Below, piece after piece: positions 1,603-44,541 of a DNA stretch of 64,000 nt. Each line of letters opens with the position of its first letter. Position 1 is the first letter of the stretch. The notes under the pieces were generated by a model. It did no database searches. It had not been told where the DNA came from and saw only the letters and a program-made list of their open reading frames with translations. Made by a program: the position numbers and the translations under genes. The stretch comes from a virus. The DNA is taken from IMG/VR virus record IMGVR_UViG_3300042558_004148, positions 143,416 to 207,415 of that record. The stretch is one strand, 5' to 3'.

Positions 1603-2154
1603 ATGAAACATCTTTTAGAATTTGATTCTTATTCTCCTATGGATGAAGCCGAGGTAAAAGCAGGAGTTCCAGTATATAACGAGGATGAGTTCAATAAAAA
1701 TACCAGTGCTAAACCAGCTATGGTCGTTAAAGTTCCTGAAATTATATCAGTTTTAAATAAATTTATTGCTGATCAGGAAAGTGGTGAAGTTGAAAAAATC
1801 GTAGTTCTAGCTGAGATTCCATCGCAAGGTAAAAATGCACCTAAGTATGTTCTTGATGATGCAGCAGCTGAAAGAGAAAGACAAATACAAAGAAAAACCG
1901 CTATCTACGGAAGTAGAACGGAGAGATCTGATAGACCTGAAGACGACGAGCAAACAGATGCAATCAACATATTTGTTGATTCCGAGTTTATAGTAAAGGG
2001 AGTTATTAATAAATTAGGTAAAGATTATATTTTAGGTATCCCAGAATCTAAGAAAAAGAAAGCTGAATCTAGTAAAGAAATGATGGACTATTACACTGTT
2101 GAAATTGAACCTAGACAAGTATTTGAAATATTCTTCTCTCCTAAGGGAATGTAA
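1603..2154 (+). CDS. hypothetical late protein with N-terminal FxxF-type motif
   Basis: This 183-residue protein is not recognised. Its N-terminus (MKHLLEFDSYSPMDEAE) fits the hydrophobic-x-x-F-x-x-aromatic pattern followed by Glu that recurs at the ends of several proteins in this window and resembles the T4 internal-protein capsid-targeting sequence. The middle is charged, with an Arg/Asp-rich stretch near 95-120. It has its own upstream GATATATA element and is followed directly by a strong terminator, so it appears to be expressed as a single gene. A head-associated or scaffold-type role is inference only. Confidence 0.7.
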   Translation: MKHLLEFDSYSPMDEAEVKAGVPVYNEDEFNKNTSAKPAMVVKVPEIISVLNKFIADQESGEVEKIVVLAEIPSQGKNAPKYVLDDAAAERERQIQRKTAIYGSRTERSDRPEDDEQTDAINIFVDSEFIVKGVINKLGKDYILGIPESKKKKAESSKEMMDYYTVEIEPRQVFEIFFSPKGM

Positions 2155-10864: not shown

Positions 10865-10890
10865 GATGGTAAAATAATTAATATTAATTG

Positions 10891-12351
10891 ATGTTATTAA
10901 ATAAGAAGGTATTAAATTTCGTTTCTTTCTTGAATGAATCAAAGACTGACGGAATAAAGGTTATAGTTCTTACTGGGAATGTAAAGGGTAGTAAAACATC
11001 TGAATCATTCAAGGAAGAATGTGAAAAAATGGGAGCTGAATGTCACGTTGTTGATGTGAACGAAGCTGTATTGGAAGCCGTGTATAACGGACATCTTATA
11101 AAGATGGACGGAGAACAGATTCTGATAGATCCAAATTCGACTGTGATTGTTCCGCGAAGAGGTGTATTGGAAAATTCACACACTAAGCAAATATTGCTAT
11201 CTTTGGAGGAAGCAAGGTATTTTACAGTAAATAGCTTGGAATCGATGGAGGTTTGCGAAAATAAATTCATTACATCGAAGATAATGGAAGAGCATGGATT
11301 ACCTGTTCCTAAATATGCTCTAGTACCCAACGAGGATGCACTTGATAGAGCACTTGAAGAGATTGGTGGTAAATTCCCGGTTATAATGAAATTATTATCA
11401 GGAACACAAGGAATCGGAGTTTCTATAGTTGATTCCTATGCATCTTTAAAATCTGTATATCAAACAATCAGAAAACTTGATGATACAAATGAGATATTGA
11501 TACAGGAGAAAATTGATTCAAAATCTGATTTAAGAATTCAGGTAATAACCAAAAAAATAGATCCACTAAATCCAACTAAAGACAATTGTATTATACTGGG
11601 ATCTATGAAAAGGGATGCTGTTGATAAGGACTTTAGAACTAATTACTCTTTAGGTGGAAGCGTTTCTAAATACGAAATAGACGATGAACTAGTAGATATC
11701 GCATGCAGAGCAGCTAATGCAGTAGGATGTCATTGGTGTGGAGTTGATATTATGATTGATAGTAAGACTAAAAAGCCTTACATTCTGGAAGTTAATTCAT
11801 CCCCCGGTACTGAGGGTATATCTAAAGCTATAGGTAAACCGATTGTGGAGGATGTTCTTGATTATATACTAAACAAAGACAACTGGTCACAATCTGACCT
11901 TGAAATAGGATATCTCGAAACATTAACAGTTCCTGGAATTGGTAGAATGGTTGCTAAGTTTGATACTGGTAACGGTGCTAGATCTTGCACATTACATGCA
12001 GACGAAGTAGAAGAGCTGGATGGAAAATTAGTTTGGCAGGTTGGTAAGAAAAAATTTGTCAATGAAATAATTGAATATTCGGATGCTGAAGTTGGTAGGG
12101 ACGTACACACAAGACCAGTTATAGAAATTGATTTAGTTTTTAATAATGTAACTGTACCTAAAGTAAAGGTATCTCCCGTTGATAGAACAGAGAAGAGCAC
12201 ACCGTTTTTAGCAAATAGAGCATTTATGAGAAAACTTGGATTAGTAGTTAATCCAGATAAAGCTTTCGTAGTAAGTGGTGAGCTAGAAGATAAATATAGT
12301 GCAGGATCATCTAAGGGTGAAGCCCATGCAGGAATAGAATTTGAAAAATAA
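10891..12351 (+). CDS. ATP-grasp (RimK-like) ligase fused to retropepsin-like 'Zn_protease' domain
   Basis: The 486-residue protein has an N-terminal FxxF motif (NFVSFLNE, F10/F13), then a RimK-type ATP-grasp enzyme to about residue 330 (PVIMKLLSGTQGIGVSIV nucleotide loop; DIMIDS and LEVNSSPGTEGI metal/ATP motifs). The C-terminal 140 residues match the retropepsin-like family PF05618: IGRMVAKFDTGNGARSCTLHA, with the catalytic-type DTG near 355, and later PFLANRAFMRKL. RimK-like enzymes add amino acids to protein C-termini; the retropepsin-like partner is normally a separate gene. The fusion suggests paired peptide ligation and cleavage on an unknown target. ATG 10891 is chosen over the adjacent TTG at 10888. 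Confidence 0.88.
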   Translation: MLLNKKVLNFVSFLNESKTDGIKVIVLTGNVKGSKTSESFKEECEKMGAECHVVDVNEAVLEAVYNGHLIKMDGEQILIDPNSTVIVPRRGVLENSHTKQILLSLEEARYFTVNSLESMEVCENKFITSKIMEEHGLPVPKYALVPNEDALDRALEEIGGKFPVIMKLLSGTQGIGVSIVDSYASLKSVYQTIRKLDDTNEILIQEKIDSKSDLRIQVITKKIDPLNPTKDNCIILGSMKRDAVDKDFRTNYSLGGSVSKYEIDDELVDIACRAANAVGCHWCGVDIMIDSKTKKPYILEVNSSPGTEGISKAIGKPIVEDVLDYILNKDNWSQSDLEIGYLETLTVPGIGRMVAKFDTGNGARSCTLHADEVEELDGKLVWQVGKKKFVNEIIEYSDAEVGRDVHTRPVIEIDLVFNNVTVPKVKVSPVDRTEKSTPFLANRAFMRKLGLVVNPDKAFVVSGELEDKYSAGSSKGEAHAGIEFEK

Positions 12352-36727: not shown

Positions 36728-36735
36728 GATATATA
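36728..36735 (+). promoter_or_regulatory. putative late promoter element GATATATA, leaderless spacing
   Basis: GATATATA ends only 4 bases before the ATG at 36740. If it acts like the T4 late -10 box, transcription would begin at or next to the start codon. Confidence 0.5.
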
Positions 36736-36739
36736 CTGC

Positions 36740-38149
36740 ATGGAAAAAGTATATAATTTTAATCAGTTTTCAAAACTGTACGAATCGCAATCTTCTAATT
36801 TACAAAATATTATAATTGGAGATTCTCTAACCCCGCTAATTGCTAAGAATTCTATTGATGTGGATATTTTAGGTCCGGTTGGATCTGAAGCTAACTTATG
36901 GAAATCCGGTGTTAATACAGAATGGCTTAAAAAAGCTGTTGCTAAATTTCCAACAACACAATCCATCAAGAATGTAGTAATAAAAATTGGTACTAATAGC
37001 GGATTTAGTATCAGGGATGACGTGAGAGGTCTATTTATAGAGCTAAGAAGGGCATTCCCAGAAGCCAAATTCTTTGTGGTACAGGGATCTTGGGGATGGG
37101 GGAATAACAAGAATGTTACTGCTGCCAAAGTGAAAGCTTATTATGAGCTTTTCTCTAAAGAGGGAGCAACGGTAATAGAACCGCCAGTTGGATATTCACC
37201 AACATCTGCAAAGGCACATAGTGAAACTCAAGCAATTAAGGAGATCGGTAAGAATTTAGACCTTGCTATACAGGAGAGTGTAAATAATTCAATTTTGGAA
37301 ACCCCGACACTGACAGATTCAGAGATAATTGTAAGAAAGGGTGATCCATATAAATATAAGGTTGTTAATGATCATTGGTTAGCTAAGAGAGACGACCAGT
37401 CAAGATGGTATGAAATTACAGGTAAGGATTTCAAACCAGGATTTCAGGTATCCATAAATATTCTAGATTCAGAAAATCCAACGCTTAGATCAAACGTTGC
37501 ACCAAAGAGAGAAAATAGAATTAAATCAGGAGAGGTTAACAAGGATATTGAAACTGACGAAACATTTCTACCACTAGGTCTCGGTGCTGATCCAGAAAAG
37601 ATAGATCCTAGAATTGCAGAAAAATATAATTTCCATATAATCCCGGACGGTAAAAAAACTAATTACAGGAGTGCTCAGTTTCCTCTTGATATCATGAGGA
37701 ACGTTTATACTAAATATAACGTTAAAAACGTAATTAGGTTAAATGATGATGGGAAGGATGGTAAACATCTACCTCTTCAGAGATCAGTTTCAATAGAAAA
37801 AGAGATGGAATTATGCAAAGAAATAGGATGCGATTTCTATAAGCTCTCGCCAACGGAAGATCAGGATAAGATAAATGAATTATTATCCAAGGGAAACACA
37901 CTAATACATTGTGCACATGGATCTGATAGAACTGGAGGATCTGTTGGGGGATATCTATATAAAACTAAATTAAATCCAGAATTATCTACCACTGAAAATA
38001 TATGGAAATATACAACCCAATATAATGATTGGAATAGCATCGTTACTAAGAATCCGGATGATTTTTTGGATGATGTTTATTTGAAACAAGCTCAGAAATT
38101 CGGAGTAAAAGATATAGAGGATGCAAAAAGACTCGCTAAACTAAATTAA
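36740..38149 (+). CDS. SGNH hydrolase-like domain fused to dual-specificity/tyrosine phosphatase, N-terminal FxxF motif
   Basis: The 469-residue protein starts MEKVYNFNQFSKLYES, an FxxF terminal motif. Residues 21-180 match an SGNH/GDSL hydrolase: IIIGDSLTP (S29), IKIGTNSG (G84, N86), VVQGSWGWG, and a late His candidate. A linker domain follows, then from about 300 a phosphatase of the DSP/PTP class with the signature HCAHGSDRTG (H390, C391, R397). The phosphatase signature is complete, so protein (or inositol/RNA) phosphate removal is likely. The motif and promoter suggest packaging in the head and injection. Confidence 0.85.
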   Translation: MEKVYNFNQFSKLYESQSSNLQNIIIGDSLTPLIAKNSIDVDILGPVGSEANLWKSGVNTEWLKKAVAKFPTTQSIKNVVIKIGTNSGFSIRDDVRGLFIELRRAFPEAKFFVVQGSWGWGNNKNVTAAKVKAYYELFSKEGATVIEPPVGYSPTSAKAHSETQAIKEIGKNLDLAIQESVNNSILETPTLTDSEIIVRKGDPYKYKVVNDHWLAKRDDQSRWYEITGKDFKPGFQVSINILDSENPTLRSNVAPKRENRIKSGEVNKDIETDETFLPLGLGADPEKIDPRIAEKYNFHIIPDGKKTNYRSAQFPLDIMRNVYTKYNVKNVIRLNDDGKDGKHLPLQRSVSIEKEMELCKEIGCDFYKLSPTEDQDKINELLSKGNTLIHCAHGSDRTGGSVGGYLYKTKLNPELSTTENIWKYTTQYNDWNSIVTKNPDDFLDDVYLKQAQKFGVKDIEDAKRLAKLN

Positions 38150-40196: not shown

Positions 40197-40487
40197 TTAT
40201 TTTAATTCGTTTATTGCATCCTCAGCATACTTGTCCCTCTGGTCCTCCAGATATTTAATCCTGTCTAGCATAATGGATTTATCCTCCTTGTTAGTCTGTT
40301 CAATATAGGCTTTCTGCTCTTCATATAATTTCTGCCAATATGCTACTCGCTCTTCCATCATTCTACCTTGATACCAAATAACACCTATCATGAGTACTAT
40401 GGTAAATGATTGTTCTTTTAGTTTAGATAGAAATACGTCGGCGAATCCTGATATATTCGAATTGCCATTTGTTTCTTTTGCTTCCAT
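40197..40487 (-). CDS. membrane protein with coiled coil, candidate holin/spanin-like
   Basis: The 96-residue protein has one membrane helix (FTIVLMIGVIWYQG, about 28-41) followed by a charged coiled coil (EERVAYWQKLYEEQKAYIEQ). It lies downstream of the endolysin, separated by a terminator, so a lysis accessory role is plausible. An AATATATAATTTT element on its strand (near 40515-40523) could be its promoter. Confidence 0.6.
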   Translation of the reverse strand: MEAKETNGNSNISGFADVFLSKLKEQSFTIVLMIGVIWYQGRMMEERVAYWQKLYEEQKAYIEQTNKEDKSIMLDRIKYLEDQRDKYAEDAINELK

Positions 40488-40533
40488 ATTCTTAATATTT
40501 TAGATATTTGAAAATTATATATTATAATAAGTA

Positions 40534-40561
40534 AAAAGGCCCGGGGATAACCGAGCCTTTT
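40534..40561 (-). terminator. terminator after endolysin gene
   Basis: AAAAGGC and GCCTTTT flank an inner CGG/CCG pair around GGATAA; read on the minus strand it lies just beyond the endolysin stop. Confidence 0.8.
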
Positions 40562-40581
40562 GGTGTTATTTGTTATTCAAA

Positions 40582-41403
40582 TTATTTTAAAAGAGAATAA
40601 TACTCTTTGAAGTGCTTAATTCTATCAGCTAAGCCAATTGTACCTCCATTAACTCTTTTAGTAACTGAGGTAACAACAGCATCAGTAGCTCCTTGATCAC
40701 AAATAGACCAAAGTTTATTGTTGTTGAAGAACCAAGCTGCAGAAGCCAATGGATATTTAGTTGAAACTAAATCTGGATTTGCTAAGATATCATCATCAAC
40801 GAATTTATCGAATGAAGTGTAATTAGCTTTACCTGTTAATTGGATATAACCTCTACCTCTAAATTTAAAACCTTCTTTAGAAGCTTCGTCACCGTTACCC
40901 ATTCTTCCACCATAAACTCTTGCAGCAATCTTTTCAGGTTGTCTTGCATAAGATTCATTAAGTGTACCTGGGAAATATTTTGGAAAAATCTTTTTAAGAC
41001 CATCCGCAGAGTAGTTAAGGTTTTCACTAACTGCTTTAAATCCGCCAGATTCATGACCACACTGAGCTAAAAAGTGAGCAAGTCTTAGTACATTACTAAT
41101 CCCAAATTTTGAAGCAGTAGCAGGAATTTGTGCAATAACTGCATCAGGAATATGACCTTTAAGAGCTGCCAATTTAAAATCAGAAGCAGGTATAGCAACT
41201 GGAGCAGCAGCAACTGGAGCAGCACCAAATAATTTAGTCCATGTTCCATCACCAACAACGCCATCAGCAGTTAATCCATTAGCTGCTTGCCATGCTTTAA
41301 CCTTAGCTTCAGTACCCGGACCGAAAGCTCCATCAGCAGCTAATCCTAATTTAGCTTGGAGTTTTTTTACGTCTTCTCCTTTAGACCCATTCTTTAATAA
41401 CAT
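40582..41403 (-). CDS. endolysin: peptidoglycan-binding domain plus GH19 chitinase-like lysozyme
   Basis: The 273-residue protein begins with a PG_binding_1 domain (LKNGSKGEDVKKLQAKLGL, residues 1-60), a linker of Ala/Pro, then a GH19 catalytic domain with AHFLAQCGHESGGF (catalytic Glu at about 118), KFRGRGYIQLTGKANY and AAWFFNNNKLW. It hydrolyses the sugar backbone of peptidoglycan at lysis. A GAATATATAA element (41424-41433 minus) gives it a late-type promoter. Confidence 0.95.
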   Translation of the reverse strand: MLLKNGSKGEDVKKLQAKLGLAADGAFGPGTEAKVKAWQAANGLTADGVVGDGTWTKLFGAAPVAAAPVAIPASDFKLAALKGHIPDAVIAQIPATASKFGISNVLRLAHFLAQCGHESGGFKAVSENLNYSADGLKKIFPKYFPGTLNESYARQPEKIAARVYGGRMGNGDEASKEGFKFRGRGYIQLTGKANYTSFDKFVDDDILANPDLVSTKYPLASAAWFFNNNKLWSICDQGATDAVVTSVTKRVNGGTIGLADRIKHFKEYYSLLK

Positions 41404-43347: not shown

Positions 43348-44541
43348 TTAAGCTATAACGCTAGAATTTAATTGAATTACTGCCTGAGCTATAATGATTT
43401 TATCAGCCTTGTTTGAATCTTCAGATGCCATATAAACTAATTCAGGAGTTGTTTTATCAACTGGTGCTAAATATTCACCCTCAACATTAAGTGTAACTCT
43501 TCTCCAGGTCTTTCTGTCTTCAGTACTTGCTTTTGGTTGAATGTCTAATTTATCAGAAACCTTAACATCAGCAGCCTTGAAAGAGGTAGTTGATTTAATA
43601 TAATCAGCAACCGCTTGAGCTCTTTCTTTACAAAGTGCTTCGTTTCTAGCTTTATCACCTTCTTGTGATGCACCACCAGTAACAGTAATACTATTAGCTG
43701 AAGCAACGTTACCTAGTGCTGCTAATATTGCAGCTTTACCTTCTTCTTTAAGAACTGATTTATTAACATCAAAAAGAGTGTTATCATCCTGAATAACGAT
43801 AGGTTTTAATGTTTCTGCAGTTGTTGTTTTTTGTCTTACGAACTGTATAATCTCCCTAGATTCATATTCAACACCACCTTGTGGAACGATCTTAACAGGG
43901 TAATAGAAATAGTATTGTACAGATACATCTGATGAACCTTTTCTATCGGCAGGCTGTGGCTCGCTAACGAATCCAGATGGTGTCTTTAATAATTGATTCT
44001 TAACTGGACTATCATATCTCCACACTTTAGCGTCAAGTTTAGCTTGATTATCTACAATAAGGTATTGATTAACTGGACCTGATCCCGAAAGGAAATCACC
44101 ATCATTTTTCTCACCTGATGTGAATTTCTTTTTACCGCTATCGTAATATGGATCCTTAAATCCACCAATATTTTTTAGGTTTAATTTGGCTAAATATTGG
44201 GCAAACCCTATTCTTTTACCCGATCCATCAAGAACTGAACCACCCAAAAGATTCTTATATTCAAATTCTTGTAGATCGAAATCGATGCTAGAAATCTCAG
44301 TTGCATCGGTTCTTGTCATATCTGATAGACAGCTACTAATACGACCCAAAGGTATTGCTTGTGAATAATTACCCTGATTAATTACTTCCTCGATAGCACC
44401 TAATGCCTTTCTTCCTTTAGCATCCAGACCTTCAGCAGCTAATGCTGTTTTAAGTTCAGTGAAATCGCTTACTTTTAATCCTTCATTAATAGCAAATTTT
44501 AAGAACTCGCTAAAGCTCTCGAATACTGGTTTATTTTCCAT
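43348..44541 (-). CDS. OmpA-like domain protein with N-terminal FxxF motif, probable virion protein
   Basis: The 397-residue protein starts MENKPVFESFSEFLKFAINE, an FxxF terminal motif. The central part is unrecognised. Residues from about 245 form an OmpA-like peptidoglycan-binding domain: NTLFDVNKSVLKEEGKAAIL, GGASQEGDKARNEALCKERAQAV and RRVTLNV. In phages OmpA-like domains occur in virion or cell-wall-associated proteins. GATATATAAT (44572-44579 minus) supports late expression. Confidence 0.8.
   Translation of the reverse strand: MENKPVFESFSEFLKFAINEGLKVSDFTELKTALAAEGLDAKGRKALGAIEEVINQGNYSQAIPLGRISSCLSDMTRTDATEISSIDFDLQEFEYKNLLGGSVLDGSGKRIGFAQYLAKLNLKNIGGFKDPYYDSGKKKFTSGEKNDGDFLSGSGPVNQYLIVDNQAKLDAKVWRYDSPVKNQLLKTPSGFVSEPQPADRKGSSDVSVQYYFYYPVKIVPQGGVEYESREIIQFVRQKTTTAETLKPIVIQDDNTLFDVNKSVLKEEGKAAILAALGNVASANSITVTGGASQEGDKARNEALCKERAQAVADYIKSTTSFKAADVKVSDKLDIQPKASTEDRKTWRRVTLNVEGEYLAPVDKTTPELVYMASEDSNKADKIIIAQAVIQLNSSVIA

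What the first reader, a model, noticed from the sequence alone, without database searches (positions are those of the whole stretch)
36740..38149. SGNH hydrolase-tyrosine phosphatase fusion, candidate injected effector
An esterase-type domain and a complete HCxxGxxR phosphatase site are joined in one protein with an N-terminal FxxF motif and a leaderless-type late promoter. A phage that delivers a phosphatase with its genome would parallel T4 Alt, but with a different chemistry.
Basis: partly seen in the sequence, partly recalled or inferred. Interest (0 to 1): 0.8.

Follow-up and report, generated by a model that had tools for sequence, protein, structure and literature searches.

The report
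Head-packaged esterase–phosphatase phage protein
A giant bacterial virus carries a two-enzyme protein whose first 15 residues look like the tag that phage T4 uses to load proteins into its head for delivery with its DNA, so it is probably injected on infection, although its target is unknown and may be the cell envelope rather than host proteins.

Summary
The ORF 36740-38149 is real: 469 aa, in a 373-kb T4-like jumbo phage record. It joins an N-terminal leader, an SGNH-type domain (GDS, GTN, His), a small middle domain and a dual-specificity-type Cys phosphatase domain (HCAHGSDR, C391). Fold prediction supports the phosphatase; nearest solved folds are TpbA and Siw14.

The FxxF motif is more than chance. 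The target and 11 relatives all keep Fxx[FY]xx[LI]xE|[SAG], which follows the logic of the T4 capsid-targeting sequence (two aromatics three apart, then a prohead-protease site). This phage, and eight of eight large relatives tested, encode the T4-type prohead protease and gp23, and their capsid proteins carry the same kind of site. GATATATA 4-5 nt before the ATG in ten of twelve supports leaderless late expression.

So packaging and co-ejection are well supported, by inference. 'Tyrosine phosphatase effector like Alt' is not: nothing fixes the substrate, both modules recur in phage proteins with peptidoglycan-binding, M23, amidase or transglycosylase domains, and many SGNH relatives have signal peptides. 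The target alone has lysine in place of the residue before the SGNH His that is acidic in most relatives. I judge it a new variant of T4-type packaged cargo, possibly envelope-acting.

The parts
36728..36735 (+). GATATATA late-promoter-like element, 4 nt before the ATG (leaderless spacing)
   Evidence: Same element at 4-5 nt from the ATG in ten of twelve; also upstream of the prohead-protease gene and other late genes
36740..36784 (+). Leader M1-E15: predicted T4-type capsid-targeting sequence, cleavage predicted after E15 (LYE|S)
   Evidence: F7, F/Y10, L/I13, E15, S/A/G16 kept in 12/12 rows; T4 rule from PMC9026906; S77 protease and gp23 in genome
36800..37279 (+). SGNH-type module (S29, N86, QGSWGWG 115-121, H160)
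   Evidence: 47/47 conservation of S, N, H and WGWG; well-predicted fold; viral lipase/hydrolase models among Foldseek hits
37325..37513 (+). Small middle domain (GDPYKYK...W...)
   Evidence: Found only with this SGNH family in viral contigs; no Pfam match
37586..38146 (+). Dual-specificity-type Cys phosphatase module; P-loop H390-R397 at 37907-37930
   Evidence: Invariant P-loop; Foldseek to TpbA, Siw14 and PFA-DSP
36740..38149 (+). Whole gene: leader + SGNH + middle domain + phosphatase
   Evidence: Relatives with both modules at 47-58% identity in L005-L008, L016, L017

Best explanation
A late-expressed internal head protein. Its N-terminal 15 residues act as a capsid-targeting sequence that brings it into the prohead core; the phage's T4-type prohead protease cuts after E15; the mature two-enzyme protein is packaged and ejected with the DNA. 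Once ejected it most likely works at the cell envelope during entry, the SGNH module on an acylated glycan and the phosphatase module on a phosphate of a nearby glycan, lipid or periplasmic protein. Shown by computation: gene, modules, leader conservation, protease and capsid genes. Inferred: packaging and cleavage (about 0.75), phosphatase activity (about 0.75), envelope rather than cytoplasm as site of action (about 0.55), activity of the SGNH module in this particular phage (about 0.5).
For: Leader kept in 12/12 rows even where the C-terminal module is missing or replaced. T4 IPIII needs residues 4 and 7 for targeting and 8 and 10 for cutting (PMC9026906); the i/i+3 aromatics and [LI]xE are reproduced. 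S77 prohead protease and gp23 in this phage and in all eight related records over 250 kb. The MCP shows HSLNE|SAG, and small genes beside it start with the same leader type, e.g. MTLKFKEWNELNEA, MLSFNEFRLSEA. Strict motif on 6 genes against 0.1-0.3 expected. Envelope link: SGNH module fused to PG_binding_1, Amidase_2 and SLT; phosphatase module fused to M23 and PG_binding_1; about 15 SGNH-only relatives carry a signal peptide or membrane anchor. Closest solved fold TpbA is a periplasmic phosphatase.
Against: No virion proteomics. The second aromatic lies 5 residues before the Glu, not 3 as in T4. T4 Alt and IPI, the best-known packaged proteins, act in the cytoplasm. No phosphatase-module protein seen has a signal peptide. 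The target has Lys where relatives have the acid before the SGNH His. No conserved Asp was found at the usual general-acid position of the phosphatase module (27 residues before the Cys in TpbA).
Confidence: 0.5

Rival explanations
1. Packaged and injected cytoplasmic effector: the phosphatase dephosphorylates host proteins, nucleotides or RNA ends just after infection, as the first reader proposed in outline.
For: T4 CTS cargo reaches the cytoplasm (PMC9026906). No signal peptide on any phosphatase-module protein. An HAD_SAK RNA-repair-type phosphatase gene lies next to or near the target gene in the window and in L005 and L008. The P-loop profile scores best against a baculovirus polynucleotide 5'-phosphatase, E 0.098; PTP-SAK and polymorphic-toxin DSP families score weakly in relatives.
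Against: Fused partners of both modules are mostly cell-wall domains, which does not suit a purely cytoplasmic role; all substrate hints are weak.
Confidence: 0.27
2. Not packaged: a late protein that helps lysis from inside, released with the endolysin through the holin; the leader has another use.
For: Module partners include endolysin-type domains; the GH19 endolysin and a holin-like gene lie about 2 kb downstream.
Against: The leader is kept as a targeting-plus-cleavage motif and recurs on head-cluster genes; lysis proteins need no such motif, and this phage's endolysin at 40582-41403 lacks it.
Confidence: 0.15
3. Core filler: the catalytic modules have decayed and the protein only fills or shapes the head core, like T4 IPIII.
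For: The target lacks the SGNH acid.
Against: P-loop and Ser/Asn/His are invariant across distant relatives, the target included.
Confidence: 0.08

Closest known systems
T4 internal proteins IPI-IPIII and Alt (capsid-targeting-sequence cargo)
   Same: Short N-terminal leader with two aromatics three apart and a prohead-protease [LI]xE site; late gene; T4-type protease and gp23 in the genome
   Different: Cargo is an SGNH + dual-specificity-type phosphatase, not an ADP-ribosyltransferase or nuclease inhibitor; aromatic-to-Glu spacing is longer; packaging not shown
TpbA of Pseudomonas aeruginosa (and Siw14/PFA-DSP phosphatases)
   Same: Predicted fold and HCxHGxxR active site (TpbA HCKHGNNR, PMC4409338)
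   Different: About 15% identity; no matching general-acid Asp identified; phage-borne, no signal peptide, fused to SGNH
SGNH/GDSL esterases (weak profile match to the CE2-type domain of endoglucanase E, PDB 2wao, E 0.02)
   Same: Ser, Asn, His blocks
   Different: Invariant GSWGWG block; acid two residues before the His (missing in the target); no Pfam match; found almost only in viral contigs
T7 gp16-like ejected virion proteins with cell-wall activity (from general knowledge)
   Same: Would be ejected from the head to act on the envelope
   Different: No homology tested or expected; different head type

Membership tests
T4-type capsid-targeted internal protein | N-terminal leader with aromatics i and i+3 and a [LI]xE protease site | tested here: met
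   spacing from aromatic to Glu differs from T4
T4-type capsid-targeted internal protein | T4-type (S77) prohead protease and gp23 in the same phage | tested here: met
T4-type capsid-targeted internal protein | Present in virions with the leader cut off | not testable with these tools
   Needs virion N-terminal proteomics
Dual-specificity/PTP Cys phosphatase | HCx5R P-loop in the right fold | tested here: met
Dual-specificity/PTP Cys phosphatase | General-acid Asp on the acid loop | tested here: inconclusive
   No conserved Asp about 27-35 residues before C391; D337, D340 and D374 are candidates
Protein-tyrosine phosphatase | Activity on phosphotyrosine | not testable with these tools
   Substrate cannot be read from sequence
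SGNH hydrolase | Ser, Gly, Asn, His blocks | tested here: met
   S29, N86, H160 in 47/47; G57 in 45/47
SGNH hydrolase | Acidic residue before the catalytic His | tested here: not met
   Lys158 in the target; Glu/Asp in 43 of 47 rows. So it is called SGNH-type here, with activity uncertain

The most novel reading that the evidence does not exclude
Jumbo T4-like phages, probably of Bacteroidota, package swappable enzyme cargo behind a common capsid-targeting leader, and this one delivers a combined esterase and phosphatase that remodels the host envelope or its signalling at the moment of entry.
Probability: 0.4. Interest if true: 0.8.

Novelty: new variant of a known kind. Interest (0 to 1): 0.6.

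Why it matters
It extends T4's head-packaging route to new chemistry in uncultured giant phages, and suggests a sequence rule (leader plus prohead protease) by which packaged, injected proteins could be listed from genomes. In the target neither module is recognised by Pfam, NCBIfam or PHROGs at their cut-offs, and no record in the held phage collection matched.

Tried and rejected
Pfam, PHROGs and NCBIfam on the target: no family over cut-off. tblastn of target, L016, SGNH and phosphatase modules against 50,697 phage records: none. Sequence search of PDB with the target: nothing useful. First AlphaFold run with 5 sequences was poor, pLDDT 60.6, and was replaced by the 55-sequence run. Paralogues in own genome: none for either module. 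Middle domain as a general cell-wall module: not found outside this family. Cellular relatives of SGNH: only two contigs, both virus-like by gene content. GATATATA: not enriched as a count, only in its placement. Literature: no paper on a phage-encoded tyrosine phosphatase found in the held library; the jumbo-phage overview PMC7824862 has no mention of SGNH or PTPase.

Full report
Observation. The ORF at 36740-38149 encodes 469 aa. The window lies at 143416-207415 of a 373,485-bp virus record. Three records carry an identical protein, and six relatives with both modules at 47-58% identity exist in IMG/VR (L005-L008, L016, L017; in L017 the middle domain is replaced). Nothing matches in 50,697 phage records.

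Modules. Alignment of 55 related stretches shows Ser29, Asn86, His160 and WGWG unchanged in all 47 SGNH rows, and the phosphatase P-loop HCAHG[AS]DRTGG in all 15 rows. The deep-alignment model has mean pLDDT 87.6, with low confidence only in the leader and linkers; pTM 0.50 means the relative placing of the modules is not known. Foldseek puts the phosphatase module with TpbA (E 1.6e-5), Siw14 and plant PFA-DSPs. Viral hits include DSP phosphatases, an uncultured-phage lysozyme, and phage lipases/hydrolases that fit the SGNH half. Caveats: the target has Lys158 where 43 of 47 rows have Glu or Asp two residues before the His, and no conserved general-acid Asp is evident at TpbA's spacing (TpbA C132 and D105; PMC4409338).

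Leader. In the target and 11 relatives the first 15-17 residues end in Fxx[FY]xx[LI]xE|[SAG]: F7, F/Y10, L/I13, E15 and S/A/G16 in 12/12, while the residues between vary. It stays when the phosphatase is absent (L020, L021, L023) or replaced by an unrelated C-terminal domain (L019, L024). In T4 IPIII the capsid-targeting sequence is the first ten residues; residues 4 and 7 set targeting and 8 and 10 set cutting (PMC9026906). The phage has the S77 prohead protease and gp23. Its gp23 carries HSLNE|SAG, the protease/scaffold ORF carries many YLAE repeats, and neighbouring head genes begin with the same leader type. Eight of eight related records over 250 kb have both genes, and in the five examined the capsid proteins keep LNE|S or INE|A/S sites. 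In 163 kb of this genome the strict motif opens 6 of 218 gene models, with 0.1-0.3 expected. I therefore take the leader as a T4-type capsid-targeting sequence. This is inference from comparative anatomy; packaging itself is not shown.

Expression. GATATATA ends 4-5 nt before the ATG in ten of the twelve genes compared, and L019 and L020 have TATATA variants there. The same element precedes the prohead-protease gene and several leader genes at longer distances. With T4-like late-promoter geometry (-10 box TATAAATA, general knowledge) transcription would begin at about the ATG.

Where it acts. Relatives of the SGNH module are fused to PG_binding_1 (L036, L039, L040), Amidase_2 (L040; L051 just below cut-off) and SLT (L048); relatives of the phosphatase module to Peptidase_M23 and PG_binding_1 (L109; weakly L108). 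About 15 SGNH-only relatives start with a signal peptide or membrane anchor (simple hydrophobicity rule). The complete phosphatase-module proteins seen start with a leader of their own phage clade and none with a signal peptide (start codons of L010 and L099 judged by eye). This favours an envelope role after ejection, but a cytoplasmic role stays open: T4 cargo enters the cytoplasm, and an HAD_SAK gene lies close by in three loci.

Verdict. The capsid protein's nearest named relatives are Lak Prevotella phages and then Flavobacterium and Tenacibaculum phages, so a Bacteroidota host is likely.

Noticed in passing
window 10888-12351 (+): Gene with a T4-spaced leader (VLNFVSFLNES) and a match to a phage ribosomal protein S6 glutaminyl transferase family: another possible packaged enzyme.
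   Followed up: partly
window 1603-2154 (+) and 43348-44541 (-): Further genes with the strict leader motif and an upstream GATATATA element.
   Followed up: partly
L108, L111, L112, L159, L161: A second clade of jumbo phages has runs of neighbouring genes that each start with one of a few shared leaders (MNLQENIQRIREMMG..., MKIKITESQLKKIV..., MGKxFILxExER...), also on genes beside the capsid cluster: possibly large cargo sets.
   Followed up: partly
L019 and L024, C-terminal about 190 aa: The phosphatase is replaced by an unidentified domain (KLPIRLSGSYRVPK...), as if cargo modules are swapped behind leader and SGNH.
   Followed up: no
L132 and L133: Membrane-anchored SGNH relatives beside a second SGNH gene (and a GH19-like lysin in L132) on contigs binned with cellular genomes but virus-like by content.
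   Followed up: no
window 40197-41403 (-): Lysis-type cassette: GH19 + PG_binding_1 endolysin and a holin-like membrane protein.
   Followed up: no
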